The translations under genes and the position numbers were made by a program. The notes beneath the pieces were generated by a model that saw only the letters and a program-made list of their open reading frames with translations, had not been told where the DNA came from and made no database searches. Below, piece by piece: positions 1 through 19,511 of a stretch of 64,000 nucleotides of DNA (the stretch's first letter is position 1; each line of letters begins with the position of its first letter). The stretch comes from Pseudomicrostroma phylloplanum. Lineage: Eukaryota; Basidiomycota; Exobasidiomycetes; Microstromatales. The DNA lies in NCBI GenBank assembly GCA_039545275.1, contig BCHS01000009.1, positions 734,779 to 798,778 on the forward strand. The letters run 5' to 3'.

Positions 1-396
1 CCATGATCTGACAAGACCTCTACTGACCTTTGGAAGTCCACTTCCCTTCTTTGTCCTGGCAGACAGGCTCCCTCATGGTGTCGAGCCTACAGCCATTTCT
101 GTCAGGGAGACGTAGTGGACCGAGGTTTGGTTAGCAGGCGAATTTGGTGGCCGGAGGTGGCTGCTCCACTCCACTCACGGACATGAGATGAAGGTCCCAT
201 CTGCGGCCTTCTTAGCGCAGTGGACGGCTGTCGAGCCACAGCAGAGGGGGAGTGGGGTGGTCAGAAAGGTCATACACCTCGGTGTGGCGTCAGATCCATG
301 CCGATGTGGGGACAGCGCTCATTGCTCACCGCTGGTACCGGTCACGCAAAGAAGCGCCGTCGCAACGGCTACGATTGTGGTGGAAGCGAAGCGCAT
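1..396 (-). CDS. Small secreted Cys-rich protein A1 (partial, runs off left edge)
   Basis: First three exons read as 330..396, 179..227 and 28..98, each bounded by GT..AG introns (donors gtgagc, gtgagt, gtcagt). Exon 1 is a signal peptide beginning MRFASTTIVAVATALLC. Exon 2 carries two cysteines (AVHCAKK.. and ..FISCP) and exon 3 two more (NGC, PVC). Intron phases are 1, 2, 1. The fourth exon, which in the neighbours holds four cysteines and the stop, would lie beyond base 1, so the gene is cut by the window and not broken. Exon sizes (67, 49, 71) match its paralogues, which supports the model. A candidate upstream element shared with A2, A3, A5 and A6 lies at 627..648. Function unknown; a secreted effector-like role is inference. 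Confidence 0.75.
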
Positions 397-626
397 CTTG
401 AGCTCGTTGGAATGGCAAAGGCCGGGAGATGTGGTGAAGAGGAGTGGTAGGGAGTGAAAGATGGGGATTTTGCCGGACTCGGTTCTCGAAGCTGCATCGG
501 CTATCTCCCTCCGACCTGGCATGGTGACGGGCGAGAATTGCCCTGGTGCCTCGCCTCGGACTTCCTCAACGTATACCCGGGCCCAGTTTTCCGGCCGGAA
601 GGCGCCGAGCGCGGACTTCCGGCTTC

Positions 627-648
627 CATCCGACACACACTGCTATGC
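627..648 (-). promoter_or_regulatory. Candidate A-type upstream element (A1)
   Basis: A plus-strand stretch reading ccatccgacacac..tgctatgc, about 230-250 bases upstream of the A1 start. It is a degenerate match to the elements before A2, A3, A5 and A6, so it is weaker than those. Confidence 0.35.
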
Positions 649-843
649 TACCCAACGGTGCAAAGCTGAAGACACCTCGAAAAGCCGCACTTCAAGGGTT
701 TGGAATTCACGGACGGAAGTCGGAGTCTCTAACAATAGGGGTATCGGAAGCTGGGCACCTTCTGCCAAGAGTGACACAGTACGGTGTTCTTGTCGCTGAC
801 CACTTATTGACAGCGAGTCACCTGCTATGTGCCACACATGGGC

Positions 844-1216
844 TCAGAGTCCTCCAATGCAGGTGCCGTCGCTGCACGAGATCGTGCAGAACAAGCCTGT
901 ACCCCTACCCTGTGCGTCGGCGGCATAGCAACCCTTGAGTGAGGGATCTGAGGGGACATCGATCACGATTGAGAGGCAAGTCAGCTCTATCTTTCTTTGG
1001 ACTTCATGAGCACAATCTGTACTGACCTTTTCTGTACGAGCCACCCTTCTGTCTGCAAGCGATCCCCGTCGTCCCGACGTCGCAGCCACCTGGGCATGCG
1101 ACGAAGATGTTGTCCTTATTCTTCGTGGCACAGACGAGAGCATCGGCAGTGTTTGCGCTGAAGAGGCAGAACAAAGCAGTCGCAAGAACGGTGAAGCTGA
1201 CGGTAGTGTAACGCAT
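844..1216 (-). CDS. Small secreted Cys-rich protein A2, two introns lost
   Basis: Two exons, 1027..1216 and 844..947, encode 97 residues. The start is the ATG at 1216 (MRYTTVSFTVLATALFCLF), a clear signal peptide. The first exon runs straight through the positions where its paralogues have introns 1 and 2, with no gap or extra residues, so both introns look precisely removed. Only intron 3 remains (948..1026, gtcagt..cag). The mature part has eight cysteines in the array-wide 2+2+4 order and contains a CPGGCDVG segment and a C-terminal GCYAA..CxxxC..C block closest to A5. Secreted; function unknown. An upstream element shared with other A members is at 1464..1490. Confidence 0.85.
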
Positions 1217-1463
1217 TGTGATTCGATGGGGATGGGATGGGCGAAGTGCTGTGATAGTGGTAAAGTCTGGGAAAGCAGTGATGTATCAGTCGAGAGCAAA
1301 GCCCCTTTTGTACTGCCACGGTTATGGACCCCTGACCCGGGAGAGAGCGGGCTACACCCCTCTCTGTGACTCACCTTGGAGTCCATTGACGGCTTTCGCC
1401 CCTCTTTCGGCGGCACGGTGACGGCTTTACATAAGGCACTGCCCCTTATTCCGGAACGCAAGA

Positions 1464-1490
1464 TTTTCCGTCGGCACAGCATTGCTCTCC
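1464..1490 (-). promoter_or_regulatory. Candidate A-type upstream element (A2)
   Basis: Read on the gene strand it contains GAGAGCAA, then TGTGCCG, then CGG, 248-274 bases upstream of the ATG. The same order and spacing recur before A3, A5 and A6. Confidence 0.5.
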
Positions 1491-1736
1491 GATTCTCTGC
1501 AAGAGCAAGGAGCACAGAACACCGGTACGGGATCCGACCTCCCTCTTTCAGATGCGAAAGGCTACTAGGCAAACAATCATGAGGAGCCGCATCAATCTTT
1601 GTTTCAAGTCTCGCTCACACAGTGGACAGCGCGTGAGAAAAGGACATGCTCGAAGAGAAAGAATCTTCGCCTACGATGTCACTCTGTCGCAGAGTGTAGG
1701 CAGGCAAAGCTACCGCCCAGCTTGGGTCCTGTCTAT

Positions 1737-2216
1737 TCACTCGCAGGTGTAGCTGCCCGATGAGTGGGGTGCGTCACACTTCACATTGCATCGGAGGGGC
1801 TTGTACTTGGATTGGCTGAACACGAGCCAGCACCCGGCTGACCTTCCACCTATAGGACAGTCCAATGCAAAAGAGCAGGTCAGCATAGTGTCCAACGAAT
1901 TTCTCCTCTCTAGAGACGTTCGCCTCACCTCCGGTGGGGGGACCATTGAGGTGTTTGCACGTGGGATCGCCCGCTTGATCGACGTCACATCCGCCAGAAC
2001 AAGGTAGGAACCAACCATTGACGTCCCTCGTTGCGCATGAAAAGGCTATGGACAAAAGGTACGAACAGCGGTTGCGACTTGCTCAGAGTCAGCATGCCTG
2101 GCACTTTTGCGCGGAGAGCTGACATCGGAGGATCACTCACCGCTGGCAGTGCTTGCACTGGAAAGGCAAAGCAGGGCCGTCGCCATGGCCGTGAACATGA
2201 GGGCAGCGTGACGCAT
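1737..2216 (-). CDS. Small secreted Cys-rich protein A3
   Basis: Exons 2141..2216, 1929..2045 and 1737..1849 encode 101 residues. The signal peptide starts MRHAALMFTAMATALLC at 2216. The 117-base middle exon equals the separate exons 2 and 3 of A4 (49+68 bases), so intron 2 is missing and the reading frame is intact. Eight cysteines follow the array pattern. The segment CATRDVNGW..CSGGC..NGPPT is shared with A6, making A6 its closest relative here, and the last exon has the GCWLV motif of A4, A6 and A8. Secreted, function unknown. Upstream it has both the CTGTACCT motif (2370..2377) and the A-type element (2397..2420). Confidence 0.87.
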
Positions 2217-2396
2217 TGAGAGTCGACAGGGGTGGGCGGTTGATTCAAGGGCTGTAGGGAGTACCGGTGAGGAAGCGAAAGGCGGTTCGCTGATCATCTC
2301 AGGCTGAGCCCTATGAGCCGCGTCGGCCATTTGGCGCCGGTGAGAGGATGGGGTGGGCTCACATTGCCCCTGTACCTCACTTTCGGGACGCAGGAG

Positions 2397-2420
2397 CTCC
2401 GGCGGCACAGCCCTGCTCTC
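2397..2420 (-). promoter_or_regulatory. Candidate A-type upstream element (A3)
   Basis: GAGAGCA, TGTGCCG and CCGG in the same order as before A2, 181-204 bases upstream of the ATG. The CTGTACCT motif lies between it and the gene at 2370..2377. Confidence 0.5.
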
Positions 2421-2798
2421 AGAGCCTCTTCACAAGGAGCACAAGGAGCACGGACTTGTAGCATTAGACACGATATCGGTATTCCAGCAGCACAAGACTA
2501 TTACAATACACTCATAAGAGTCTGCATGCATCGTTGCTTGTGTTTATAATCCTGCTCATCGAGGGAAGAGCGCGTAAAAGTATGCAAGTTCTAGAAAAGG
2601 AGACTATGTTGATATACAACGTACCTTGATCGTCGAATGTAGGAAGATACTAGAGCTTACGTGTGGCTCTGATACTGTGCATTCATACGCAAGTGTAGTC
2701 TCCATGAGGAGCGTTTCGATCCAAGGAAGCCAAGGCGAGGGGCACCTCAGAGCCGAATGGGTCGCGGTCGTTAGTCTTCGTGACTATGACAGGCTTCA

Positions 2799-4655
2799 TT
2801 ACTCATTACTTAGATGGTTGTGATGACTGCGATGTTCTGGCCTTGCGATCCTCTTGGCCCAAGCCTCGACGACGGCAAGAGACATCGTCTCGTGATCCAC
2901 TCGTGGCGAGACAGGCGGGGAGAGCATTCCGTTTTCGTCCACCTCGAAGCGGCACTCTGCACCCAAGTGAGCGATCAGCACCATCGCCTCCTCAAGCTCG
3001 TAAGACTGCTTGACGAAGTTGCAGCCCACGTCCAAGAGCTGGATATTGTCGTCGGAGTACTTGCCTCTGTTGCTGCGCGGGACTATGGCGTCCAAGGAGA
3101 CCATGCTTGGCAAGACGGTGCCTGGGCCATAGGGAGATGCTCCGAGAGAGGGCACCATCTCTGCGTCGCACATTTGGCAGGTATGACTTCAAAGACAGGA
3201 AGCAGAGCATCTTGACGATGGATGGCGTGAAGTAGTAGAGTCGTACAGCAGCGGCGGCGTGGCCAAGGTCGCTGCATTCGTCCAGGTACCGTACGATTGC
3301 CTCCAGCACGGGTAGCGCTTCCTCCACCAGAACACGCGCAGACGGGCTGTCTCCGATCCTTTCGGCGGACCAGGGGAACCTCGGCATGAGTATGTCCGAA
3401 GTCGAGTCATTGGCGGGGGCAGGGGCAGCGGAAGCACGCTTGACGTGGGCAACCCAAGTCATGATCGACTCGTGGGGCCGGAAGGCGAGTATCTGAGTGG
3501 TCGATGATGATAAGTCAACAGAGCTTCGTAGTTAGTGATCTGCATGTTTGCATTCCTGACTGCGTCTCAGATCTCGTCTGCTCACCATTGACTCTACCTC
3601 GTCAAGATCCAGCCGACCGGCAATGTCCACTAGCCGTGGCGCCACATCAGCTGCCACGACACCTCCGAAGTTTGTGATGAGGCGCCTCCAGACGTTGCCA
3701 TGCATTGAATTCCTGTTGAAGCGGCTCAGCAGCGACGTCCAGCGAGCAGCCCTGGTGGGATCCTGGCGTAGGCTATGGGCCACTTGGTATAGGAGGCACA
3801 ATGCTCCGACGGAAAGCCATTGCCTGACGCGATCTTGCCAAACGGGGTCTCCGGCGAATCCTGATGGTTGACCGGACCTGTTGAAAAGGAATGTGGTGAG
3901 CAATCAGCCTTGGAGCGACACATCTGCGACGGTAGACTCACAGGGCCAGGATGTTGGTCCCCAGGATGAACGCCAGTGGTATGCCGCTGATGTCTAGAGT
4001 TGCCGCCTGTGGGTCCACTCCAGACTGCCGCAAATGCAGCCCCACATACCACTCCACAGCGGTCTGTTGGGGGCGACGTTCTGCCAGGGAAGTCGCACTT
4101 ACATCCGGTGGCACAAGCAGGTCTGGAATCAGCGGTCCGTTGCCGACCTCGACGCGAGTAGGAGGAGGAGGAGGAGGCCTGGCGATCCTTCTGAAGTCGT
4201 CAGCACGGAGGCAATCCAGAATGCTCTGGTGGTGTGGACCCGCCCGCAAAAACTATGACATGAAGGAGAGAGGGAGGTCAGAGGATGTCAGCACTTGTGC
4301 GTAGACAACGCTTCTTGCATCCCCTACTCACCGACTCCAGCGCCAGAGGATAATTGCCGGAGCGCATCTCACCCAGGAGCTGATCGAACACCCGCCGTAG
4401 ACCGTCAGTCCCATAGATCTCTTCTCGAGGAGCACCACCGGCGCTGTACCGGAAGACTGCATTCCATATCTCGTAGGAGAGATGCTCGCGTAAAGCCGTC
4501 TTCCAGTGCGCAAGCCAGCCCTGCTGAGCTCCTGGCTCCCGAGTGGAGAGGAACTTCAGAAACTGAAGGCGGGCCATTTTGGTATCGAAGTCGTGCTGCA
4601 CATCCGCCCGTAAGCCGTGCATGGCCTCGAAGTTCGTGAGATTGGTTGGCTTCAT
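2799..4655 (-). CDS. Hypothetical multi-exon protein inside the secreted-protein array
   Basis: Well-supported exons are 4332..4655 (from the ATG at 4655, MKPTNLTNFEAMHGLR), 3942..4252, 3586..3877 and one starting at 3492; the introns have gtgagt or gtgagc donors, good acceptors and matching phases 0, 2 and 0. The exon from 3492 reads well to about 3180, but the plausible C-terminal part (2799..3173, ending HHNHLSNE) lies one base out of frame. This is either an unrecognised intron (for example one ending just before 3162) or a real or assembly frameshift. The true 5' end may also lie further up, since an intron-like stretch runs 4661..4736. The product of roughly 540 residues has no signal peptide, and I recognise no family. 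It has a PPPPPP run and is unrelated to the secreted genes around it. Confidence 0.5.
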
Positions 4656-5981
4656 CTGCCTGTTCGAGGGTAGGCGAGGAAAGTGTCAGTGCAGACTCTC
4701 GGCTGAACTTTGTCTGGGCTGCGAGGGACGTCTTACCAGAGGAAGAGAGAAGAGGAGTCCGTAGATAGACTCCCGCGCCTCGCTTGCCAAGCCTCTGCAT
4801 GGCTGACTGCTGACGAGGTTGGGGGTACAAGGTTGGGGGTACAAGATTGGTGCAAGATTGAGGGCATTGGAAAGTCGCATTGTCTTGCGCTTTGTTGCCT
4901 CTTCTCGAAAACCTATCGAGTTGCTTGTGCCGTTGTGATTGCCCAGAGCTTGATGCTACTTTGAGAAAAGAAGAAGAACTAGTCGTTGAGGCGAGCTAGG
5001 AGGTGGCGTTGCCCGCGTAGTGCGTTGATGCTGATACTGATGCTGTAGCTGCTGTGGCTGCTGTTGCTGTGGTCCTTGAGGCGTGCAAAGAGGCGGCCTT
5101 AGCCTCTCTTGACGACGATGTTCCCGATGTAGAACGCAGAGAGGATGGCCTTGGCCTGCTCTTGTCAGGGTTCGATGTTGTCTAAACGAGGCAGAGCGGG
5201 GTGTGGAAGAGTGGCGACTATCAATTCTCCGAACGTGCATGCATAACCGAGACTCTCTGGTGAGCTGCCCTCGTGTTGAGCTCTGCAGGTGTGTCTTACC
5301 TTTTGGTGACGCGTGAGTCTGAAGTGGCTTTGTCGAGGACAGTTGATCAAGATGGGTGATGGTTGGGTGAAGAGGTGACAATGGTGAGTGGGAGGTGGGA
5401 GACAAGGGAAGGCAGCAACGGATGAAAATTCGATGGATGGGCGCGGTGAAAAAAGGGGGGGGGAAAGAGATTGCGGCACCCCGCACACGTGCACGGGGCC
5501 CCGCGCTCGCCCCAGCCTCTGCACTCTGCAGGCATGGCCTCGAGCTCGGGTCCGTCCCGTGCTGCCTTTCCGCCAACGCCTTTCCGAAGCAGAGGAGTCA
5601 TACGGGCCTTTCCCTGTTCCCACTGCCAACTTTGCGACCCTGCTCTACATCTCACTACACCACCTTTGATCCTCGTCACCCTCGATCCTCACCACTCTTG
5701 ACCCTCACCACCTTTGATCCTCACCATCCTTCATCTTTACCACGGTGGGCGCACGTAGCCATCAGGACACGCGCACCCTCCATGCACCAGATGAGCGGAC
5801 AGCATCACGACTTTTGCGACCAAGCACGGCTTTCGATGGAATGTATTCTACTATGGAAGATTGAAATTCATCACAGGACGTGGCAGAGACAATGCATCTC
5901 ATGTCAGAGACCCGTCTAGGTGTGGGCTGGTGAGCACGCTGAGTCGCCTCCCGAGTGATCCCAGTGGCCTTGTTAGCAGCC
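4656..5981. other. Intergenic region with low-complexity tracts
   Basis: Between the hypothetical gene and A4 I find no convincing complete gene. There is an A6G10 run near 5450, repeated cacc/tgatcctcacc tracts at 5650-5750, and a Gln-codon-rich stretch at 5010-5080. On the minus strand, 5098..5157 reads AKAILSAFYIGNIVVKRG before a stop, with an intron-like GT..AG just above (5180..5318), but I cannot connect it to a start codon; it may be the tail of a small gene. Confidence 0.4.
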
Positions 5982-6514
5982 TCAAACGCAGCCGAAGTCG
6001 CCTGTCGCACCGCCATCGCTACACTGCAGACTGCAGCTCTTGGGCTTGTACGCTGGGTTGCTGTAGACGAGCCAGCACCCGTTGTTCCCCTTATCTGGAG
6101 CAAGCAATTCCAGATAGGCAAGAAGGTCAGCAGCGTGTGTAGTCGGTCGCCTTCTGAGACGAGAACTCACCCTTCGCATATTTGCCATTGGTACCTCTGC
6201 AGGCCACTTCCTGCTTGGTCCCTATGTCGCATCCCCCCCTTTTTGCAGAGAGAAACAGAGAGGTTCAGCTTGCTGGGCGGTCGTGCGCTCTGACAGTCAA
6301 AGCGTGCTACTTACGGACAAAAAGCGAACTTGCCATCGGGGCCTTTCGTAGCGCACTGCATAGCTGTGGTTGCAAAGGTGAACAAGCGGTGTCAGAGCTT
6401 TCCGCTCGCTGATACAGTAAGGAGGTGGGCGTACCTACCGTTGGCGCCGCTCGAGTGGGACAAGCAAAGCAGCGTCGCTGCAAGGACAGTGAGCGTGATG
6501 GAAGAGTAGCGCAT
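5982..6514 (-). CDS. Small secreted Cys-rich protein A4
   Basis: This is the full four-exon form: 6439..6514, 6315..6363, 6171..6238 and 5982..6094 (76, 49, 68, 113 bases), encoding 101 residues. All introns are GT..AG with phases 1, 2, 1. The signal peptide begins MRYSSITLTVLAATLLC. Cysteines fall two in exon 2 (QCATK.., FCP), two in exon 3 (GGCDIG, ACRG) and four in exon 4 (GCWLVYSNPAYK.. then C, C, C near the stop). I used this member as the reference to recognise intron losses elsewhere. CTGTACCT is at 6649..6656 upstream. Extracellular; function unknown. Confidence 0.9.
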
Positions 6515-6958
6515 TGTGGTTCTACGAGGATGCGAAGATCATCTTTGACCCGGTGGGAGAAGCATTTCTCCTTGAAGTGCACCGCCTCGGCTATCTCTAT
6601 CTGACCCCGCCCGGTGAGCCGATTCGCAATTTCGTGTGCCTCGTCTGGCTGTACCTTTGCTCACAATATGCCCTGAATTTCAATCATTCGGCGCAGGATG
6701 GCCCTCCGTCGGTGAAGGCACGACCGTCCGACTGGCATCAAACGCGGGCCACGGTGCTGGGCGGTGCAAGGCTGCATAGCACTCGAGGATCGTGGCTCAA
6801 ATGGGAGTCTCATTGGGGACTCGACTGGTAGTCGAGAGATTTTCAAGAACAGGTGTCCTAGACTGAGCACGTGATACAGTAACAAGAACTGGGATACGAT
6901 GCTCTTGTCAGGGGCTGCATGACGGTCCTGAGTCTCTTGCTGCGTGCCACATGTGAGC

Positions 6959-7494
6959 TCAGTAGGAACCTCCCAAGCAGGTGCCGCTGTTGCACGAGAA
7001 TTTGCACATCAACCCCGTGCCCTCACCTCCCTGGGGAGCGGCATAGCATCCCTGCAGCGAAGAATCTGAGGGGGCATTGATGGGAAGGGAGGAGCAAGTC
7101 AGCTTTGTGCCCGCAATATACTTCATCGAAAAGTCGTCGTACGGACCTCGCTTATACGATCCATCATTTTGTCGGCAGGCTATCCCCTTGTCACTCCCCA
7201 CATCGCACCCTCCTCTGGCGAATTGTCGTGGAAAAGGACCTTTGGAGCTGTTGAGCGAGTGTGTCTGCTGATGGGTACTGCTAAGTCTAGCTACTCACGG
7301 GCATGCAACGAAGGCGCCCTGCTTCCTAGTAGCACAGATGAGATCGTTACCTGCCAAGTCGAAGAGACAGTTCAGCGTGCTATCGGCTTGAATGGAAGAG
7401 CGGTGAATCTCGGCTCACCATTGGCAGTGCTTGCACTGAAGAAGCAGAGCAAAGTGGTCGCGAGGACGGTCAGGCTGAGGGAAGTGTAACGCAT
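6959..7494 (-). CDS. Small secreted Cys-rich protein A5
   Basis: Exons 7419..7494, 7299..7350, 7147..7214 and 6959..7065 encode 100 residues. The signal peptide starts MRYTSLSLTVLATTLLC. The third intron uses an uncommon donor, gtccgt, but the phase (1) and the flanking protein (..GSYKR / DSSLQGCYAA..) fit the family, so I keep it. Eight cysteines are in the 2+2+4 order. Its exon 3-4 protein is closest to A2, suggesting these two are a duplicate pair even though A2 has lost two introns. Upstream motifs are CTGTACCT at 7651..7658 and the A-type element at 7711..7735. Confidence 0.87.
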
Positions 7495-7710
7495 GGCGAT
7501 TGATGTGAATTGGGAAGAGGGAAGTCTGGTGGTAGAGACGAAAGGCTGTGTAAGAAGCGGGAAGAAGGGCCTTTATCCTCTCAGGGTGACCCTTCTGTAC
7601 TGCATCGGCTCGGACTGCTGACCCGGCACGGTGGCGGGTTCAGAGTGCCGCTGTACCTCACCTCGGAATACCTTCAGGGGTTTCGCCCCTTTCCTTCGGG
7701 GCACAGAAGT

Positions 7711-7735
7711 CTTTCTCCGGCACACTGTTGCTCTC
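7711..7735 (-). promoter_or_regulatory. Candidate A-type upstream element (A5)
   Basis: GAGAGCAA and TGTGCCGG in order, 217-241 bases upstream of the A5 start; CTGTACCT is nearer the gene at 7651..7658, the same arrangement as A3. Confidence 0.5.
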
Positions 7736-8015
7736 AAACCACTCTGCATGGGCAAGGAGCTCCGAGGCCCTGCTCGTATTGGACGCAATGCCACAGTCGC
7801 AAATGTACATGGCTGCTGAAGCCTTGTTGTACAGAGCAGCGGTCGACTTCAGACCGTTTTGATCGATTCTCACATGGTAGGTCTTCTCATATGAAAGGAG
7901 CAGTACGTCAAAGTTTACATGCTCCGGAGAAGCGCTACACCTCGGCTTTCTTTCATCCCAGGCAGACGCCGCTGCTGCAAGACAATCCCCAGAAGGAACG
8001 GGCTGCTCCACTTGT

Positions 8016-8499
8016 TCATTCGCAGGTGTACTTGCCGGACGAGTTGAGTGGCGCACACTTTGTTTTGCACTGCTGAGGCTTGTCCTTTATGCTGCTGGAG
8101 ACGAGCCAGCACCCGCCGTACCACGTACCTGCACCATGTTTTCGAATGCCAGGAAGGAGGTCAGCACAGTTGGAGAGTGCACGGCGTAGTTGGAGAACCT
8201 CTCTACTGACCTGACGTAGGGGGTCCGTTTGTGCGCTTGCAAGTCACCTTACCATTGCTGACTTCGCATCCACCACTGCAAGGGAGGGACCAGCCGTTCC
8301 TGTCCCTCGTAGCGCATGAAACAGCTACGAAGGCGTGACACAAACAGCCGGTGACGGATTGGTACTGGTAAAACTCAGCGTCTTCCGTCTTACAACATGA
8401 GTAGATAGTCACCGATCACTCACCGTTGGCGGTACTCGCATTGAATACGCAGAGCAGAGCCGTGGCAAGAGAGGCGAAGGTGAGAGCAGTGAAACGCAT
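8016..8499 (-). CDS. Small secreted Cys-rich protein A6
   Basis: Exons 8424..8499, 8211..8324 and 8016..8128 encode 100 residues. The signal peptide starts MRFTALTFASLATALLC. Like A3, the middle exon (114 bases) is a fused exon 2+3, so intron 2 is absent. The shared CATRD..NGW..LPCSGGC and NGPPT segments show that A3 and A6 are recent paralogues, and one loss event before their duplication explains both. The last exon has GCWLV and ends with a C-terminal CE. Eight cysteines in the mature protein. Secreted, function unknown. The upstream A-type element lies at 8688..8712. Confidence 0.87.
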
Positions 8500-8687
8500 T
8501 GCAAGTGGTTGGGAACGGATGGACAGGCGGAGACTTGGTGAAAGGTATCGTCATTGAGGAGAGGTCGACGCTTCAAGGCCTTCATCCTGAGCCTCCTACA
8601 CAGCCCGTTCTGCTGAGCTTCGGGCAACGGGTCGGCTGTTCCGAGGCGGCTGTACGCCGGCCGGTACCTCATTCTCGGGACGTAGGT

Positions 8688-8712
8688 CTTCCGACGGCAT
8701 GGAGTTGCTCTC
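8688..8712 (-). promoter_or_regulatory. Candidate A-type upstream element (A6)
   Basis: GAGAGCAA followed by ATGCCG and CGG, 189-213 bases upstream of the A6 start. A GGTACCTCA at 8663..8671 occupies the place of the CTGTACCT motif. Confidence 0.45.
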
Positions 8713-8885
8713 GGTACATTGCGTCCGGCCGTCAGCGTGCCCCATCAGCAGTCTTAGCCGAGGCAGTGGAAAAGGCGCGAGGGTCAAGGCTGCAGGCCAA
8801 GAGCAATAGATCTCATCATTTCTCCCTGTCCACCGGAGTGGCCTGGAAAAGGTCCGCCTGTCACCGCGTCGCGGTGCAACAATTC

Positions 8886-8958
8886 GGTCCGAAATTGACC
8901 AAGGCGAGGAGTTCCGCCGGCTTTTGTGTCTTTTGCGGCTCTGACACGACAGGGACCA
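8886..8958. repeat. Upstream block, copy 1
   Basis: About 73 bases recognisably similar to 9971..10043 (shared runs AATTG, CCAAG, CGCCGGC, CTGACACG). It lies between A6 and A7, about 390 bases upstream of A6. A shorter, weaker match is at 10156..10198. Confidence 0.5.
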
Positions 8959-9223
8959 GCATTTCCGGTAAAAAACCCCAGCATGGCTTGGCCGCACGAG
9001 GCACCTAACACTCAGAGAAATGCAGAGCGGACACGCTTGGCAAGAAAGCGAGACAGGTAGTGAAGAGAATAGAAGAGGCCCAATGACGGTACCGAAGGAA
9101 GGTATACAGCGTGAGGCATGTCCGTTCTGTGTTGTCTTCTCAGACCTGCGAGAGCGAGCCAGATGAATAGACGTTCATCGCAGCATGCCCCTCCCGCCTA
9201 CAGTCGCAACGACCTGACGCTTC

Positions 9224-9783
9224 TCAAATGCAATTAGCGCCCGCATGACCGTTCGTAGGTGAACAGTGCAGGGGGCACAACTGCTTCGAGTTGCCCTCGC
9301 CGGGCTGGTCCCGGATCAGATAGCAACCGTCATCCTTCCATCCTGAAGAGAAGGTGCGGCGGGGGGCAGAAGACCTCGCAGCATGAGCTCAGGAAAAAGG
9401 TGCTCGTGGGTACAAATCCTGCTCACCTCGGTGGTAGTGTCCGTTTCCATCGGCACAAACAGGCTGATGATCGGTGTCGACGTCACAAGCGTCGCTGGGC
9501 AAGCAAAGAAGCTGCCTCAGCAATCTGCAGCGAAGCTACAAGCGCGACTTGTCTTCCTCAGAAGCATCGTAGACTCACGGGCAGATGGCATACGTTCCAT
9601 CGTAGGTCCTCACGCCGCAGTGAAGGGCTTCGTGAAGGACAGGGAGAGGGTAAGCATCAGAGGCTTCAGCGCAGTGGTGCTCCAGGATCAGGGAAGTATG
9701 CGCTCACCATTGATCTTTGCCGCGCTCAACATGCAGAGCGCTGCCGCCGCCAAGATGGTCGCTTTTGAGGATGACAAGCGCAT
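9224..9783 (-). CDS. Small secreted Cys-rich protein A7
   Basis: Four exons, 9708..9783, 9579..9627, 9427..9494 and 9224..9342 (76, 49, 68, 119 bases), encode 103 residues. The signal peptide starts MRLSSSKATILAAAALC. Exons 2 and 3 match the reference sizes exactly, and every junction is GT..AG in phases 1, 2, 1. Eight cysteines. The last exon contains CPLHCSPTNG, shared with A8, making A7 and A8 a pair. A roughly 73-base block at 9971..10043 upstream is repeated at 8886..8958. Secreted; function unknown. Confidence 0.87.
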
Positions 9784-10483: not shown

Positions 10484-11009
10484 TCAGACGCAGACGTATC
10501 CCTCCGGTCCGTTCGTCGGCGAGCAATGCAGAGGACACTTGGTCTTTTGATTGAGCTCTCCTGGCTCGTCTAGAATCAGCCAGCATCCTGTCTGCTGGTA
10601 CCCTGCACAAGTGGAAGGGGAGCTGGAGTAAGTTCAAAGTGCTTGCATCTCTATTCAATCGACACTGACCGAAATGATAGCCTCCAATACCGTCTTTGCA
10701 AGCAGGCCGATGCATAGTCGTGACATCGCATTGGTCTCTAGCTGGGTAGAAGCGAGGCTGTTCGGCTTGTTGCTTGAAAGTATGCGCAGATGGCCTGATA
10801 GCGTTCCGCACTCACGGGCACCGAGTGAAAGACCCATCGTAATTCTTGACGGCACAGTGCCAGGCTGCGAAGAGGCACTCGATTCGTCAGTGAACCCAAG
10901 CGCCGCGAAGCATCACATATAGTACACCTCCCTCACCATGGATACGGGGGACGTTGGAGATGCAAAGCAGCGCCGTGACGAGCACTGGGCTCAGGGAAAC
11001 AGAGCGCAT
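10484..11009 (-). CDS. Small secreted Cys-rich protein A8
   Basis: Four exons, 10937..11009, 10816..10864, 10670..10737 and 10484..10602 (73, 49, 68, 119 bases), encode 102 residues. The signal peptide starts MRSVSLSPVLVTALLC. For exon 3 the acceptor at ..cccag would give an immediate TAG in frame; the next acceptor, gctag four bases on, keeps the frame and gives the family length of 68 bases. Eight cysteines; GCWLI and CPLHCSPTNG appear in exon 4. Closest to A7. Secreted, function unknown. Confidence 0.85.
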
Positions 11010-11591
11010 ATCAAAGAACCAAACGTAGATGTCCTCCAGGTAAGAGAGCGACAGGAGTGCCGAGATGTGTTGAGGACAAATGAGAAGGGGGGCTGAGGGA
11101 GGGCTGTGTTTCTGTGACTGACAATTTTTTCTATCCGTTACGGTATTACAGGACTTCGCAAGGCCGCTTACCGTGCCTGACGGAGTACAATTTCCGCACG
11201 AAGCACGTTGGGCCAGTCGTTGGCCACCGAGCGGGCTTCGAAGGATGCGCGAATGCCGAGGGACACCTTTGAGATACAGACGGAATCCCGAGCTGAGCTG
11301 CGCTGATACAGTATCCCCCCACACGCTCGGCGCTTCAGCACTCTTCTCTAGACAAACGTGTTCGGCAGACTGCAAGTGAGATATCGAATGTGATATGGAA
11401 CGAACATGTGAGGAATTCTTATTTCAATGATGAGGTAGACCGCTCCGCTTGAACAGACGGGGAGACAAGGGCGAGCCTCACCAGAGACAATCGACAGAAG
11501 AGATCTTGATTGTGGTGGTCTCTTGAGAGCAGGACTTCGTACATTGGCACAGGCAAGCCGACCATCTTGCGCAGGTGCCATCATCGCATTC

Positions 11592-12136
11592 TCACTTGCA
11601 GACGGGGCGTCTACCCTTGACGGAGCACTCCGTGCTGCAACTCTTGGTGGAACCCGCTTCAACGTCGTCGTCCATGGTGTCTCCGACGACATAGCACGAC
11701 CCTCCGACTGGGCCTGATGATGATGTGAGGTGGTGGGCGAACAGTGAGCATCGGAAAGTAGCTTCGTTGGGACTGTCTGCACTCACCTTTGAGGAATTGT
11801 CCGTCGGCGCTCTTGCAGAACGGTTGGTTCATGAATAGAATGCAGTCAGAGCTGGAGCTACACAACAGCAAATGTGGGTGTGGGTCAGCGGATGAGGAGA
11901 ACACGATGCAGGCGAAAGAGACTCACTTGCACAGCTCGAGATCCCCAATAGCATTCATCACAGCGCAGGCGGTACCCCCTCCTGCTATAGTATTGTTACA
12001 AGGAGGCCAAAAGTGTGTGAGTGAGGCTATAATGGCCCAGCTTGAACTCGCCGCTGGTCTCACCTTTGACATGAGTTGCGCCGAGCAGGCAGATAAGAGT
12101 CGTAGCAATAACAGCAATGGTCAGAGAGGCACGCAT
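11592..12136 (-). CDS. Small secreted Cys-rich protein A9
   Basis: Four exons, 12064..12136, 11927..11984, 11787..11857 and 11592..11713 (73, 58, 71, 122 bases), encode 107 residues, the longest of the complete members. The signal peptide starts MRASLTIAVIATTLIC. Phases are 1, 2, 1. Exon 2 is more divergent (an Ala-Gly-rich start and no CATK motif) but keeps its two cysteines; exons 3 and 4 keep two and four. The GGSCYVV segment opening exon 4 resembles the inverted exon at 12211..12320. Its 5' leader abuts that inverted exon, so its original promoter may have been displaced. Confidence 0.85.
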
Positions 12137-12210
12137 GGTTGGGAGGTAGGTCAAGGAGTGGAATGATGGAGAAGGGGAGACGAGACGAAGTAAGTCTTGC
12201 GTTGTCGGAG

Positions 12211-12320
12211 ATTCATGCTACTTGGTCACCGACCACAACGATCCTGCTGGTAGCGGTACCAAGGCGTGCGGCTTCCACTGCTCGTCGACTGACGGCAAGG
12301 GCGGGTCGAGCTGCATGTAA
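12211..12320 (+). pseudogene. Inverted orphan copy of an array terminal exon
   Basis: On the plus strand, opposite to all array genes, 110 bases read as a typical last exon. They begin after an AG at 12209..12210 in the right phase (2 bases, then 36 codons), open with DSCYLVTDHNDPAG, carry four cysteines in C..C..C..C order (SCYLV, KACGFHC, SSCM) and end at TAA 12318..12320. No plus-strand exons 1-3 precede it; upstream is the 5' leader of A9 on the other strand. The nearest minus-strand gene, A10, lacks a recognisable last exon. The phase and length would complete A10, so I read this as its displaced, inverted fourth exon or as an inverted duplicate fragment. Confidence 0.7.
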
Positions 12321-12856
12321 AGGGCTGTGAGCGCATCTGCCTACGCAAGACGCTATTTGTCCAATCTGTCCGCTGCGATATCAGCGTGCTGCCCTCGCTT
12401 TTCGAGATACAATTCCAACCCATGTGCCCTCTTTCCAAAGCGTCGTTAGTGGGAGTCAGCCTGATCCTCTGATCTGTCTGTCCCACCAGACAGACCACTG
12501 AGGTACTGCAGACTTCGTCAGCCAGACCGAAACCCAGCCGGCTTGTGGTGCTGGCGATGTGTTGCCTCCGAAGCCGAGCTATCTTGTTGTGCGCCGGACT
12601 GACTTCTGAGCTGCCGAGAATTCGACGTGGGCCTGGATGGGTCTGACCGAAGCCCACTTCTCCGACAGTCGGTTGCAATGTGTCCTTCGCAGACGTCGCG
12701 AGTAAGGAAAGCATTCATATTCTCTACAAGACCAATCTTCCTCTCTGAAGAAGAGACAGGGGAGACAAGGGTGGACGTCACGAGGGACAGGAGGTAGAGA
12801 AGAGACGAGACCGGTCAGCTTCGCAGCTCACCTCTCATTCGATACTTTGCACTCAC

Positions 12857-13220
12857 CCTTGATGTATTTGCCATCGCCACCCCTGCAAGCGGGTTGTCTC
12901 TTTGTGCTCACATTGCAGTCGGAAAGGTAGCTGAAAGCCACAAAAGAGGGCTCTGCGTGAGTCTTGGGTAAGCCAAGAAAGTGTGGTACGGGGGACTTAC
13001 GGGCAAAAGACAAAGTTTCCATGAGAGTCTTTGACGGCGCAAGTAGGAGTCGTTGCTGTCGTTGTCGGAAGGGCAGGGTATCTGAGCTGGGTCTGGTACG
13101 ATTTGATCGCAATCTGTCGCTGGCGTTCAAGCTTATGGAGATCTCACCTTCGACTTGGCTGGCGCCAAGAAGGCACAGAAGTGCCGTGGCTACGATGGCA
13201 ATGGTTGACGTTGGGCGCAT
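12857..13220 (-). pseudogene. Small secreted Cys-rich protein A10, lacking its last exon
   Basis: Exons 13148..13220, 13001..13055 and 12857..12930 are intact: signal peptide MRPTSTIAIVATALLC, then two plus two cysteines, phases 1 and 2, and a normal gtgagt donor after exon 3. Downstream on the same strand I find no exon with the four terminal cysteines; acceptors near 12743 lead to unrelated protein. Reading through the donor adds nine codons (GECKVSNER) before a stop at 12828, which would give a shortened protein. The matching terminal exon lies inverted about 540 bases away (12211..12320). Either the gene is broken by a local inversion or it survives as a truncated form. Confidence 0.7.
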
Positions 13221-14494
13221 GATGCTGGCGGTATCAAGAATGGTCAGTGGGGTGTGGTGACAAGCGTTGCCACTAATGGTCAGAGAGAAGAAGACGAGTC
13301 TGGTCACGACGCTGGTGCACAGCCAGTCGCATTCCCTGCCCTTTCTCTAGGGGTACTTCCGGCGGCTCGCGCTTGCCGTGGGCGGCAACGGCTAGCGGGA
13401 TTCCGAGGGCGCATGCAGGGCAGGCACCGGCGTTCAGGAACAGCTCCGAAGTCGAGTTTCCCGGCGGCTGTAGGACGGAGCACTCTTGGATATGACCGCG
13501 AGGTTGACCGCTAAAACCAGAACTCGGTGATAAGGATGCACGGGTGCTTTCGCAAGACACACTTTTCGTCTCGCATCGATTCACAGCCACCCTTGCCCTT
13601 TGATGGCCCAGCTTCTAGCATATTTTGGGGACAGCAGGCCCCACGATCCGAGAAGAAGGGAGGCATCGCGCCCAGGCATGGGGGAGCTCGACTGGGCTTT
13701 CACAGATTCGACTCGAAGATGCACGTTCGCCAGGAACAACGGCGAAGGCTCAGTAGCACCAGACAAAATTGACAAATCTGCGCCGAGAAAGGAGTGCGCC
13801 GCAAAGTCCCTCTGGAGCAAGTCGGATTACAGAACAGGGTCGACGCAGGGCTACTATATAGCTCACTCGACGCCGCTAGATGCAACGGCGCACGGCTTCC
13901 TCGGTAATCCGATTGGGACTTCTGCGCCCTCCAAGGTGCAAGGGGGCCAAAGGACAAAGACTCGGGCGTAACAGGTGTCTTTGATTCACCCCCGAGCCCG
14001 CATTGGACCTTTCTTAATGTACCTCCCAACAATCCAGCACCTCTGCCCACTCGTCCGACCCTTGACTCTCTCCTGTACCGCGATCGCCCTGAGCGAGGCG
14101 TCACCCCTGCATTGGTGGGTGAGGATTGCCGGTTCCTGAGGCGGGTACGCTTTGCATAACGAGGCTAGAGCAAGGCGCTTGCGCCACTGGCACAATGTAA
14201 AGTACTGTACCTTAGCGGGATCCTGAGCCCGCAAGTCCGAAAGGCAACGTCTGGAGTCCGATGACCCTCGCCGAAGGACACTTCGCCGTGTGACTATGCG
14301 AAAGCCTGGGGGTCTGACTGCAACTGAGAGTGCTGATCACAAGTGGAAGGACATGTCACAGCCTCACAAGACACGGAAGACAACGGTGTTCTTCTGGAGA
14401 GAGACAAGGACCGCTTCATTGCATCGGCCGAGATGCGGGGGACAGTGGTGCTCCATGTGCAGTAGTCGTGAGCCGCTCGCTATAGGACGAATCC
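13221..14494. other. Gap between A and B subfamilies
   Basis: Nearly 1.3 kb without an array gene. Apart from the orphan TATA module at 13854..13873 I see no supported feature; open frames here lack signal peptides and splice-consistent exons. Confidence 0.5.
13854..13873 (-). promoter_or_regulatory. Orphan TATA module, possible promoter relic
   Basis: The plus strand reads tatatagctcactcgacg, matching the B-type TATA module, but no ATG follows on the minus strand within the usual 80-105 bases and no array exon is recognisable below it. It may mark a lost array gene. Confidence 0.4.
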
Positions 14495-14923
14495 CTAGCG
14501 GCAGCCACTGCCGCGAAGTCTACCAAGGGAGCCACACTCCTGCCCCTTTTCGCACTGCTTGAGTGGCTGGGTCGACACCCGAAATAAGAATTCAGCGCAA
14601 GGCGTACCGCTATCGCCTATAAGGGCATGGGACGGTCAGACTGGCTCGATCTTGTGGGGCGCATGCTGCCGCGACCCCTCAGACTTACCGACTTCACCGC
14701 CAATGGGACCTGCACATCTGGTGGAGCCGGACCTGTCAGCAAGGCAGCCACCCCTACAAGTCTTCCATTGTCCATTCGATTTGATGCCACAGAAATTAGC
14801 TGGCAGGCGGTGGAGACTGTCAATGATGCCGAGGATGAGACGGCTTCGGCTTCAATCTGCCGACTCACCAAGCGTCGTTGAGGCGAACAGGACGCAGAGG
14901 ATAGCAGCGCTGAGAATCCTCAT
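14495..14923 (-). CDS. Small secreted Cys-rich protein B1
   Basis: Exons 14869..14923, 14689..14799 and 14495..14616 encode 95 residues. The signal peptide starts MRILSAAILCVLFASTTLG. The 111-base middle exon equals exons 2 and 3 of B2 (46+65), so intron 2 is precisely absent; the remaining junctions are phase 1. Exon 2 begins ANFCGIKSNGQWKTC, almost as in B2. Eight cysteines follow the 2+2+4 order of the whole array. A TATATA sequence lies at 15001..15006, 78 bases upstream of the ATG. Secreted; function unknown. Confidence 0.87.
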
Positions 14924-15000
14924 GATGGTGTGTGGGAAAGGAGCGAGGTGGCAGTGTGAAGAGAGAGAGTCAGAGTGGCCACGAAGGATCGTGAGGTCAT

Positions 15001-15016
15001 TATATAGAGCACTCGA
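15001..15016 (-). promoter_or_regulatory. TATA box with flanking motif (B1)
   Basis: On the gene strand it reads TCGAGTGCTCTATATA, 78 bases upstream of the B1 ATG. The same TATA plus flank occurs before B2 and, less exactly, B3. Confidence 0.65.
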
Positions 15017-15523
15017 TGTCCTTCGCGACAGTACCTTCGTTAAGGTGGGGCGTAAAGTTCCTGGTAGTCCGAGATTGTATCCTCCCGTACCTGGACCTCC
15101 GCGATCATGAACGAATTTCACGGGCATAAGAAGTTCTGTTCCTGGATGAGCGACAAAGCAAGGCCGAGAAAGGCACAAGCCCGGCCAGCACGCTAAGGAA
15201 CGATGCTGCAGCAACATCAGAAGGCGCATGCGCCGCTGATGCAATGTACCTCGATGTCGATTCGGAGTGCCCTACCCGAAGGGCAACCTTCAGCCTCGAC
15301 CAACGTCGCAGAGTGACGTCCGCTACCTGAGCTCTCAGCGCTCGATTGAGCACCGTACAGTATTGTAGTCACGAGATGGAACAGCCGCCGCAAGCACACG
15401 GAGCACGATATGTATTTGTCAGCAGAGAGACAAGAAGCGCTTCAAGAGTCTGGGTCAATATGAGAGAGGTGGCATGTCGAGCGATGCGTATAGTCTGCTC
15501 GCTGCAGAACAAAAGTGACCAAG

Positions 15524-16059
15524 CTAGTGGCAGCCCATGTCTTTGATGTTGCCAAGGTAGCCGCACCCTTTGCCCTGGTCGCACTCCCGGAGTGTTGAGG
15601 TCGAGGCTCGAGATTTGAGCACTGCGCAATTCGTGCCAAGGTCGCCTGTGAAGATATATAGTGGTCAGACTGCGTCTCTCTCAGGGCACCTCTCGCTGAG
15701 GCCGTTATAGCTGCAGATCTGGGACTCACCCTGCTCGCCGCCACCAGGGCCAATGCACTTCGACTGGCCGTAGCTATCGATAGCGCAGGCGCCCCTGGGA
15801 AGCGTGTTGAACAGATCATGGAGGGACGAAGAACCGGTCAGCGCCACTCTACGATGGTCTGCAACACCGTTCGAAGCTCACTGGCAAGTTTTCCATACTC
15901 CATCGTACTTGAGACCACAGAAGTTAGCTGACAGACAAGCGCAGGAAGGTGCAGAATACTCAGCGAGGCGCACTCGAGCTGCTTTCGTCATGGAGCAAAC
16001 ATACCAAGCGTCGTCGACGCGAACATGATGCAGAGTATGGCAATGCTGAAAGTCTTCAT
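15524..16059 (-). CDS. Small secreted Cys-rich protein B2
   Basis: Four exons, 16005..16059, 15882..15927, 15730..15794 and 15524..15645 (55, 46, 65, 122 bases), encode 95 residues. The signal peptide starts MKTFSIAILCIMFASTTLG. Donors are gtatgt, gtgagc and gtgagt, in phases 1, 2 and 1 as in the A group, which argues that A and B derive from one ancestral gene. Two cysteines are in exon 2 (NFCGLK, KTC), two in exon 3 (GACA, SKC) and four in exon 4. A TATA box lies at 16148..16155, and CTGTACCT at 16385..16392. Secreted, function unknown. Confidence 0.9.
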
Positions 16060-16148
16060 GATGGGGTCGTGGGGTTGCGAAACGGAGAGGGCGAGGTGTT
16101 GGGAGTGTGGAGCAAGACGAGTCAGGGAACCATGGAATTGAGACCCCT

Positions 16149-16163
16149 ATATAGAGCACTCGA
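16149..16163 (-). promoter_or_regulatory. TATA box with flanking motif (B2)
   Basis: CGAGTGCTCTATATA on the gene strand, about 90 bases upstream of the B2 ATG; nearly identical to the B1 site. Confidence 0.65.
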
Positions 16164-16772
16164 CGTCGTTCGAGGTTATGAGCATGGTCGCGCAGGGCTC
16201 TTGCTACCTATTCGTGAAGGGGGCGAGGGTACCTCTCGGAGTTCCGAGATCCGTGCCCCCCTGGGCGCCCTGTTCCCGGGCCCTCGAAACCAAGCCTCGT
16301 CACCCTGGAGGGGGAGTACCCGGGCTGAAAATTCAGGTTCCTACATCCTGATGAAAATGGGGTGTAGGGTCCCACCGGGGTGCACTGTACCTGGCGGGTG
16401 GATATTCGGGGGCGAGGGGAGTAGGGGGCAGGGGTCTGTGGGTTCCTGCGTTTAACTTTGAAGCTCATGTCCGAGTTCCTGCATGCAGTATATCGTTGCC
16501 CGAGGGCCCGGAAGACGCGGAACACCTGGCACTATGACACTACGCTACGGTGCGAGGGGGCTGATCTTTCGGCGTTCTACCGAACGCAGCGTACTGCTCA
16601 CACAAGGAGAGTCATACCCGAAGGACATCAGGCACAATTTGTAAAATTCAGAAGAGACAAAGGACCACTTCGCAGTGTCGGTCGGTAAGGGAAGCTGTGA
16701 GGCACGTCGAACGTGCGCTTTCGGGGCAAAAGGCGACATGGTACCAGCCCAGTCGTCAAATCATCAGCCCAA

Positions 16773-17299
16773 CTAGAGGCAGCCGTTGTCGCCAGAGTCG
16801 GCGAGAGGGCCGCATCCCATGCCGCAACTACGGATGGGCGACGTCGAAAGCTCAGAATCGAGCACTACGCAGAGGGAACCAATCTCGCCTGGGAGGGAAC
16901 AGAGAAGGGTTAGATAAAATCAGTTTTTCCACGACCTTGGAAGTCCTGTCACAACTGTAGCTCGTGAGACTTACCGATCTCGGCGCCGTCGGCACACTTG
17001 GGAGTGCCGAGGTCATCGACAGTGCACGCGGATCTGGGGACAAAGTTTGGAAGCGCAGCAGTGAGGACGAAGGGAAGCTTTGAGCATGGTGCATCGTCTG
17101 ACTTCGCAGTGGCCTCGTATTCACTCACTGGCAGCTCTTCCACTCTCCGTCAGACTTGAGCCCACAGGATTTCTTAGCTGTGAAGGGGCCGCAGAGTGGT
17201 CAACGAAGCATGTCCAACGTATGGGCAGGCATACTTCGACTCACCAAGCGTCATGGAAGCGAGCATAAGGCAGAGCATAGCAACAGTGAAGGTCTTCAT
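16773..17299 (-). CDS. Small secreted Cys-rich protein B3
   Basis: Four exons, 17245..17299, 17129..17177, 16975..17033 and 16773..16888 (55, 49, 59, 116 bases), encode 92 residues, the shortest complete member. The signal peptide starts MKTFTVAMLCLMLASMTLG. Eight cysteines: CGLK..KSC in exon 2, ACTV..KC in exon 3, and LC, SC, GC, GC in exon 4. Exon 1 is nearly identical in layout to B2. A TATA box is at 17404..17409 and CTGTACCT at 17642..17649. Secreted; function unknown. Confidence 0.9.
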
Positions 17300-17403
17300 G
17301 ATGGCGTCGTGGGGGTGGAAGAAGCAGGTGAAGTGGGTGAATGCGGTGAAGTGGGGAATGAGAATGGTTGGCGAGGCGAAAGGTAGACCAGATTTCGAGG
17401 TCG

Positions 17404-17420
17404 TTATATAGGGCATTCGA
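17404..17420 (-). promoter_or_regulatory. TATA box with flanking motif (B3)
   Basis: CGAATGCCCTATATAA on the gene strand, about 105 bases upstream of the B3 ATG; a variant of the B1 and B2 sites. Confidence 0.6.
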
Positions 17421-17950
17421 AGTGGCTCGCTACAGCAAGACGATGCATGCAGGACTGTTTCAAAGCATCACACGAAGCCTGCGAGCCGTTGCTCAGTATG
17501 TCGAGGTCTGTGCCTTGCGTACCCGGAGCCTCGAGACCAGATGCCTCGTTTCTCGAGACATCGGACTTGGTGACTCTCGGTATGAAGCACCGTGTTCCTG
17601 CCTCTACGAACGAGTGGGGTGTAGGGTCCCTCCAGGCTGCACTGTACCTGGAGTTGGAAGCAAGGAACCGAGGGGCGGCCCTGCATAAAATTCTGAAGGT
17701 CACACTCGGAGCTCTCGGCGACATAGGAGTTGCACGCAATGTGCTTGAACAAGGCACGAGCGCACTCCCGACTGAGGAACTGCAAGAGCTGAGGAACTCC
17801 AGTATCACACTGAGCGCGAAGGGAACGATGGCGAGCACAACGGCATGACAATCTCATAGGCAAAAGACAAAGAAACGAAGTTGTCGACAGTGATGTACTT
17901 CTAACAGTAGCAGTAGGGGTCTAGTCTGCTTTGAGGCCCGGGTTTCATTT

Positions 17951-18478
17951 CTAATTGCCAATCTTGCAAGCGTACTCTGGCACAACGTCGGCATGGGAGA
18001 AGTGACAGTCGCCCGGGCACATCTCGAAAGGGCTTGAGGACGTGGGGGAGAGCAGCGTTACACAGGGCGAAAAGCCATCGCCTGTGAGAGCGCAGAGGCG
18101 AGTAATGATCGCCAGCGAGACTGCTACATCTGGTTGCTGTTTTCCACGAGGCAATGCTCTTGGGACTTACCCTGCTTGTCGTCACAGGTAGCTCGGCCAG
18201 CGCTGCTCTTGCTGCAGCCCTCGCTACAGGTTGCACAAGCGGAAGAAGCGGATAGCGGAGGGATTTCAGCTGAGGAGAAGAAGCATCGTGTGGCTAAAAC
18301 ATCACTCACGAGCAGGATTGCCACTGGCCCTTGACCAGCATGCCACAGACGTTGGCTGTGAGGATGCAGCGATTTTGTGAGTATGAGATGCTACTCTCCG
18401 AGCTCTTCTCAACTGCTCACCTAGCGCCGCCGAAGTGAATGTCAGAAAGAGAGCGATAACGACTACTGGGGTCTTCAT
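17951..18478 (-). CDS. Small secreted Cys-rich protein B4
   Basis: Four exons, 18421..18478, 18310..18355, 18171..18223 and 17951..18081 (58, 46, 53, 131 bases), encode 95 residues. The signal peptide starts MKTPVVVIALFLTFTSAALG. For exon 3 the first possible acceptor (..cctcag) would create an immediate in-frame TGA; the downstream acceptor ..tgtag keeps the frame and the two expected cysteines. Exon 2 reads ANVCGMLVKGQWQSC, clearly parallel to B1-B3. The last exon is longer than in B1-B3 and has four cysteines. CTGTACCT occurs upstream in reverse orientation at 18794..18801. Confidence 0.85.
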
Positions 18479-18925
18479 GACGGCTTTGAGGAAGGTTTGT
18501 CAAGTCGTGAAGGAATGCGAAGTGCAGACCGACTGAAGAATCCTTTTCAGGGCATCTTGAGACGCTCGGGAACAGGGACATGCATATCGAGCCGAGCAAT
18601 TTAGGGGACGTTTGCGCCATTGCAATCGACGATATACCCGGTGCGTGCCTGGCCACCGTCCTACGCGCTGGCTTCATACAGCCACTACAGACAAGTCAGC
18701 CATTTCAAAGAAGTTCATCACATTTATTTGGCTCGTTCGTGCCTGAAAGAGCAGGTGCGGGCAGCAGGAACAGTACTTTGCGACTAGTGGCCCAGGTACA
18801 GTAGCCCCCCCCTCGGACAAGTCCTGAGAGCAACACGGACTTTCCTCTCCCGCGATGCGATTTCCCGCCTCTAGCACCTCCGTGGCGACCGGCATCGGCA
18901 TAGCCACTGTTACTGTAAAGTCTGC

Positions 18926-19511
18926 TTAGAGACTGCCCCTCTTACAGGCGTACTTGTTCGTGGCGGGATTGCGTAGACAGGCGACGTGACAAAGGTCGAC
19001 TGGGCCGCCCGTAAGGTGGTTCTCCGAGTCCAGAAGACCACAGGGCGTGTTCGCGTTGCCTGTTTGAGGGAGAAGGAGGAGCAGGGGCAGGGAGGAGAGA
19101 ATGGTCAGCGTATTTTGTATGCTGTAGAGGGCAAACAGAAGAGGAGGTCGGACTCACCATGCTTATGTCCACAGTACGCCTGGCCCATGGTGTTTACTTC
19201 ACAGGGACCCCTAGAAGGACAGAGGTGAGTGGGGAAGGTGCGGAGTCAGCATTCGCCATGCGCTCCCCTCTCCTGGGCTTCGTGTACCAGCACTCCACTT
19301 ACTCGCAGGATCTCCAGTGGTCACCGACCTTGATGCCACAGCTGAGCGTAGCTGTTGGTCTCGTCGAGAGGAGGGAGTGGTCGGAGGTTCAGTGGAGTCC
19401 GAGGAGGGACTACTGTTGAAAGGAATGCGGAGGTCTGCTGCTGTACCCACCCATTGTGGACGAGGCAGACGCGATGCATACGAGCATCGCGGTCATGATG
19501 GAGAGCTTCAT
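18926..19511 (-). CDS. Small secreted Cys-rich protein B5
   Basis: Four exons, 19451..19511, 19303..19351, 19158..19210 and 18926..19059 (61, 49, 53, 134 bases), encode 98 residues. The signal peptide starts MKLSIMTAMLVCIASASS. The first intron has the donor gtgggt. Cysteines: LSCGIK and RSC in exon 2, PC and YC in exon 3, and four in exon 4. The last exon (NTPCGLLDSEN.., then three Cys near a basic C-terminus) groups with B4. This is the right end of the array. TTATAA lies about 75 bases upstream of the ATG, and CTGTACCT at 19766..19773. Secreted, function unknown. Confidence 0.87.

What the first reader, a model, noticed from the sequence alone, without database searches (positions are those of the whole stretch)
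1..19511. Tandem array of 15 small secreted eight-cysteine proteins with one conserved gene plan
Seen in sequence: fifteen minus-strand genes, each with a signal-peptide exon and introns in phases 1-2-1, with cysteines 2+2+4 over exons 2-4. Two signal-peptide subfamilies (MR.. and MK..) share the plan, implying descent from one gene. Mature parts are highly diverged apart from the cysteines, the pattern expected of fast-evolving secreted effectors or antimicrobial-like proteins. I do not recognise the family. Individual exons are so short that automatic ORF finding misses nearly all of these genes.
Basis: partly seen in the sequence, partly recalled or inferred. Interest (0 to 1): 0.88.

Follow-up and report, generated by a model that had tools for sequence, protein, structure and literature searches.

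The report
Tandem array of eight-cysteine secreted proteins
A fungus related to the yeast Microstroma glucosiphilum carries a row of about 16 related genes for small, apparently secreted proteins with eight regularly spaced cysteines that fit no protein family we could find; what they do is not known.

Summary
The array is real. Fifteen minus-strand genes start in the window (396–19511) and a sixteenth lies outside at −847. An automatic splice scan with the 2+2+4 cysteine rule found 10 loci there (9 of the 15, plus −847) and none in the controls. Three spliced models match annotated Microstroma glucosiphilum proteins end to end without gaps, at 71–81% identity. "One plan" is too strong: 10 of 15 fit fully, 4 lack intron 2 (one also intron 1), and 13220 lacks an in-frame four-cysteine last exon. 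No significant Pfam or PDB sequence match; full-length relatives were found only in M. glucosiphilum. AlphaFold2 of one relative (pLDDT 78.5, pTM 0.62) is all-beta, one cysteine per strand in two four-strand halves, without PDB match; this counts against the KP6-like fold I first suspected. Function is inferred: disulphide-locked extracellular proteins acting on other organisms. Positive selection was not seen (dN/dS 0.32–0.76 in 7 of 9 pairs) and mature pI is mixed (4.3–9.0), so effector or cationic antimicrobial roles are unproven.

The parts
18926..19511 (-). Gene 1 (MK group), 98 aa, 4 exons, phases 1-2-1, cysteines 2+2+4
17951..18478 (-). Gene 2 (MK group), 95 aa, full plan
16773..17299 (-). 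Gene 3 (MK group), 92 aa, full plan; likely orthologue P0001, 78% identical without gaps
15524..16059 (-). Gene 4 (MK group), 95 aa, full plan; likely orthologue P0006, 71% identical without gaps
14495..14923 (-). Gene 5 (falls with the MK group although it begins MR), 95 aa, intron 2 absent
12858..13220 (-). Gene 6 (MR type), exons 1-3 with four mature cysteines; no four-cysteine last exon in frame as modelled
11592..12136 (-). Gene 7 (MR side of the tree, longest branch), 104 aa, full plan
10484..11009 (-). Gene 8 (MR group), 102 aa, full plan
9224..9783 (-). Gene 9 (MR group), 103 aa, full plan; likely orthologue P0002, 81% identical without gaps
8016..8499 (-). Gene 10 (MR group), 100 aa, intron 2 absent
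6959..7494 (-). Gene 11 (MR group), 100 aa, full plan; unusual GTCCGT donor at intron 3, modelled by hand
5982..6514 (-). Gene 12 (MR group), 101 aa, full plan
1737..2216 (-). Gene 13 (MR group), 101 aa, intron 2 absent
844..1216 (-). Gene 14 (MR group), 97 aa, introns 1 and 2 absent
1..396 (-). Gene 15 (MR group), exons 1-3 in the window, exon 4 outside at -57 to -166; full plan. A sixteenth gene (88 aa, full plan) lies outside at -847 to -1342

Best explanation
An old tandem family of small secreted proteins in the Microstroma lineage. Seen in sequence: the gene structures, a hydrophobic leader that ends near the first intron, eight fixed cysteines, diverged groups, and three members with likely orthologues in M. 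glucosiphilum, so part of the array is older than that split. Predicted: each mature protein (67-79 residues) is an all-beta domain of two four-strand, four-cysteine halves, probably held by four disulphides. Inferred: they are secreted as stable scaffolds whose loops and charge differ between copies, and act outside the cell as binders or inhibitors aimed at other organisms, more likely microbial competitors on plant surfaces than a plant host.
For: 10 loci (9 in the window and -847) against 0 in each control. Three spliced models match annotated proteins of another species over their whole length without gaps (proteins), which supports their junctions independently. Constant cysteine spacing in 17 sequences. 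Model of P0001: pLDDT 78.5, pTM 0.62, eight strands with one cysteine in each by position, no helix outside the leader. Net charge runs from -5.3 to +5.7 on one scaffold, as expected if copies have different partners (inference). M. glucosiphilum is described as constitutively yeast-like in culture (PMC7766764, passages), which leans slightly away from a host-invasion role.
Against: No expression, secretion or activity data. No significant match that gives a function. dN/dS below 1 in all 7 pairs that could be computed, so no sign of an arms race by that measure. The model rests on 4 full-length rows and 18 exon pieces, mostly of MK type or of the last exon, and the MR-type model is of low confidence and does not show the second half. 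The lifestyle of the window's own species is unknown. What the targets are is inference from general knowledge of small cysteine-rich secreted proteins.
Confidence: 0.45

Rival explanations
1. Plant-directed apoplastic effectors, as in the tandem effector clusters of the smut Ustilago maydis.
For: Same subphylum (for Microstroma); tandem, lineage-restricted as far as searched, small, without known domains. U. maydis cluster 19A is such a cluster, with five gene families at about 30-86% similarity and no paralogues elsewhere in that genome (PMC4081774, passages).
Against: Part of the array is shared with M. glucosiphilum, described as constitutively a yeast in culture. Cluster 19A proteins are said to lack a characteristic cysteine spacing, unlike these. 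No in planta data.
Confidence: 0.3
2. Self-directed structural or developmental proteins, such as wall or surface coat components, with different copies used at different stages.
For: dN/dS below 1 in the 7 pairs computed and likely orthologues between species fit a housekeeping role; hydrophobins are eight-cysteine fungal families used this way (listing only).
Against: No hydrophobin-type adjacent cysteines (hydrophobin pattern recalled); no credible Pfam match; the wide spread of charge is unexpected for one structural part (inference).
Confidence: 0.2
3. Misread non-coding DNA or an array of pseudogenes.
For: 13220 lacks an in-frame last exon; 7494 has a weak intron-3 donor.
Against: 15 of 16 models keep an open frame and eight mature cysteines; dN/dS below 1 in the 7 pairs computed; annotated counterparts in another species.
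Confidence: 0.02

Closest known systems
Four hypothetical proteins of Microstroma glucosiphilum (P0001, P0002, P0006, P0007)
   Same: Full-length homologues, each on a contig of 790,043 bases; three match genes 17299, 9783 and 16059 at 71-81% without gaps.
   Different: Annotated singly as hypothetical. P0007 carries a 22-residue insert at the intron-2 position, perhaps an intron annotated as coding, and its partner gene is unclear (66% to 16059, 57% to 14923).
Ustilago maydis effector cluster 19A
   Same: Cluster of secreted, lineage-specific proteins without recognisable domains (PMC4081774, passages).
   Different: 24 effectors, several families, no characteristic cysteine spacing, expression mostly coupled to plant colonisation (abstract start); here one family with strict spacing and no expression data.
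KP6-like effector fold (KP6, Zt-KP6-1, AvrLm6-like)
   Same: Small secreted cysteine-rich fungal proteins (PMC9632046, passages).
   Different: KP6-like proteins are described with two alpha-helices; the model here has no helix outside the leader.
Hydrophobins
   Same: Small secreted fungal proteins with eight cysteines.
   Different: Adjacent cysteine pairs there (recalled); here the smallest spacing is 3 in 17 sequences, and Pfam gave no hydrophobin match.
CFEM proteins
   Same: Secreted, eight cysteines; the cut-off UniRef name of P0001 begins 'Extracellular membran', perhaps a CFEM label (recalled).
   Different: No CFEM match in Pfam and no C-x-C spacing (CFEM pattern recalled).

Membership tests
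Tandem cluster of small secreted proteins (smut type) | Adjacent paralogous genes for small proteins with leader peptides | tested here: met
   16 models in a row on one strand; leaders judged by hydrophobicity only
Tandem cluster of small secreted proteins (smut type) | No paralogues elsewhere in the genome | tested here: inconclusive
   5 of 15 eight-cysteine members used as queries hit only the array, except one weak hit on C1 (E 0.05) with no gene model; these searches also miss many array members. Structure scan of about 1.2% of the genome: none
Tandem cluster of small secreted proteins (smut type) | Expression induced on a plant host | not testable with these tools
   No expression data
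KP6-like fold | Two alpha-helices packed with beta-strands | tested here: not met
   P0001 model all-beta outside the leader, pLDDT 78.5, pTM 0.62; P0002 model without helix, low confidence
KP6-like fold | Structural match to a solved KP6-type chain | tested here: inconclusive
Hydrophobin | Adjacent cysteine pairs (recalled) | tested here: not met
   Smallest spacing 3 in 17 sequences
CFEM | Pfam CFEM match; C-x-C spacing (recalled) | tested here: not met

The most novel reading that the evidence does not exclude
A disulphide-rich all-beta fold not yet in the PDB, built by duplication of a four-strand, four-cysteine module, restricted to the Microstroma lineage and deployed as a diversified extracellular arsenal from one tandem locus, whose genes repeatedly lost introns 1 or 2 but never intron 3.
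Probability: 0.3. Interest if true: 0.65.

Novelty: new member of a known kind. Interest (0 to 1): 0.42.

Why it matters
If the fold is new, one locus offers 15 natural variants of a small disulphide scaffold. Exons this short are easily missed: only four full-length relatives came back from three protein searches, although the limited reach of those searches may also be the cause. Sister copies with and without introns make a compact case for studying repeated intron loss.

Tried and rejected
KP6-like fold: suggested by the C...CxxxC...C pattern occurring twice; set aside because the model is all-beta. Internal duplication by sequence: hhalign of the two halves gave only 9.5% probability over 14 columns, so it rests on cysteine spacing and predicted strands. 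A second locus: the C1:995602 hit gave no gene model. Cationic antimicrobial family: pI is mixed. Positive selection: not seen. Viral structure library: 60 matches at E<=10, none at 0.001. The first gene finder asked for a strict branch point and found 3 loci; I loosened it for after reading the sequence, and used the loosened one for the controls too. Papers: BCV69DRAFT is in 0 papers. I saw no description of this family in the listings of the nine searches, which cover open-licence PMC papers only. PMC9816061 (passages) modelled the secretome of this same species, as Pseudomicrostroma glucosiphilum, so models of its members may already exist; supplements were not open to me.
Full report
WHERE. 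Its closest proteins come from Microstroma glucosiphilum (Ustilaginomycotina, Exobasidiomycetes, Microstromatales) at 71-81% identity, so the fungus is probably a close relative. No conserved gene was compared to settle this.

THE ARRAY. Sixteen gene models lie in a row on the minus strand, fifteen starting in the window. The scan (hydrophobic first exon, three introns in phases 1-2-1) gave 13 loci on the array strand and left flank, 10 of them with 2+2+4 cysteines: nine window genes and the one at -847. The plus strand there gave 0, and the rest of the window, both strands, 1 locus, without the cysteine rule. Twenty-one other stretches (20 plus L003; 418 kb of strand, about 15 kb masked) gave 6 loci and 0 with 2+2+4. 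Thirty order-1 simulated copies gave 6 and 0, against 13 and 10 for the real sequence. Six genes (14923, 13220, 8499, 7494, 2216, 1216) were modelled by hand.

GENE PLAN. Of 15 window genes 10 show the full plan. 14923, 8499 and 2216 lack intron 2; 1216 lacks introns 1 and 2; 13220 has exons 1-3 and no in-frame four-cysteine last exon as modelled, though a loose cysteine match lies downstream in another frame. The gene at -847 has the full plan. Close copies keep the introns that 14923 and 1216 lack (16059 and 7494), so loss is the simpler reading. The tree asks for three changes of the intron-2 label (bootstrap 2-3), but starred branches force only one, and shuffled labels do as well in 393 of 500. 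Intron 3 is in all 16 models.

PROTEIN. Cysteine spacing over 17 sequences, 15 array members plus P0001 and P0002, is C-x(10-11)-C-x3-C-x(8-9)-C-x(10-16)-C-x(12-18)-C-x(3-5)-C-x(4-12)-C. Pfam at E<=10: 10 families over 15 members, none in more than 2 members, best E 0.0018; P0001 none, P0002 one at 1.9. PDB by sequence: none for the profile; three estrogen-receptor chains at E 0.1-0.18 for P0002, probably through cysteine spacing. AlphaFold2 on A9 (22 rows: 4 full length, 18 exon pieces): pLDDT 78.5, pTM 0.62; strands 22-27, 30-34, 38-40, 46-48, 61-64, 74-76, 79-82, 89-91, each holding one cysteine by position (sequence). P0002 alone: pLDDT 52.6, pTM 0.35; strands 28-32, 38-41, 45-47 and 53-56 hold the first four cysteines, while residues 76-103 are below 50. 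I had no coordinates, so disulphide pairs are unknown. Foldseek and VIA-align gave no PDB match for the P0001 model; the tool warns that this does not show a new fold.

RELATIVES. Three protein searches passed 1 of 997 candidates (E<=1), 4 of 652 and 2 of 280 (E<=10). P0001, P0002, P0006 and P0007 are from M. glucosiphilum. P0003 and P0004 look like unspliced pieces of a near copy of gene 7494 on a contig of 1,948 bases; P0005 is a diverged metagenome piece. In the own genome five members served as queries; the matches lie in the array except one on C1 at E 0.05 without a gene model. These exon-by-exon searches also missed many array members, so absence elsewhere is not proven.

EVOLUTION. Nei-Gojobori dN/dS of the mature parts over nine pairs: 0.32, 0.32, 0.36, 0.50, 0.33, 0.61, 0.76, and two not computable because dS is saturated; one of those two includes 13220. 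Introns of the pairs still exceed the best of 20 random pairs (0.43) in 9 of 21 comparisons, and upstream 250 bases exceed the best of 10 (0.39) in 5 of 9, so some non-coding likeness remains. Mature pI 4.3-9.0 over 15 members.

UPSTREAM. AGGTACA lies within 450 bases upstream of 7 of 16 genes against 0.4 expected, AGGTACAG in 6 against 0.17; three MK genes share CTATATA. Shared ancestry may explain part of this.

FLANKS. Left: a gene with histidine-specific methyltransferase and FGE-sulfatase domains, and a DnaJ/TPR gene. Right: a gene with a weak VTT-domain match, just below Pfam's cut-off.

VERDICT. A genuine, old, tandem orphan family of apparently secreted eight-cysteine proteins; a new family within a known kind of locus. 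Function is open; extracellular action on other organisms is my best guess, at 0.45.

Noticed in passing
window about 2820-4800, minus strand: Probably a multi-exon gene in the gap between 6514 and 2216, by eye; the one open frame tested (2992-3462) has no Pfam match.
   Followed up: partly
window 63900-64000 and L034, first 120 bases: The contig ends in a short repeat whose reverse complement begins contig C5 (a 40-mer: 2 copies in the window, 1 in L034), so the assembly may break at a shared repeat.
   Followed up: partly
L024 and L028, first bases: Contigs C2 and C3 begin with short tandem copies about 47-48 bases apart.
   Followed up: no
upstream of 19511, 17299, 16059, 14923, 7494, 6514, 2216: Shared AGGTACA word within 450 bases upstream, 7 of 16 genes against 0.4 expected.
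   Followed up: partly
P0007 (M. glucosiphilum): A 22-residue insert at the intron-2 position, possibly an intron annotated as coding.
   Followed up: no
L018 (C1:1-10000): 7578 of 10000 bases read N.
   Followed up: no
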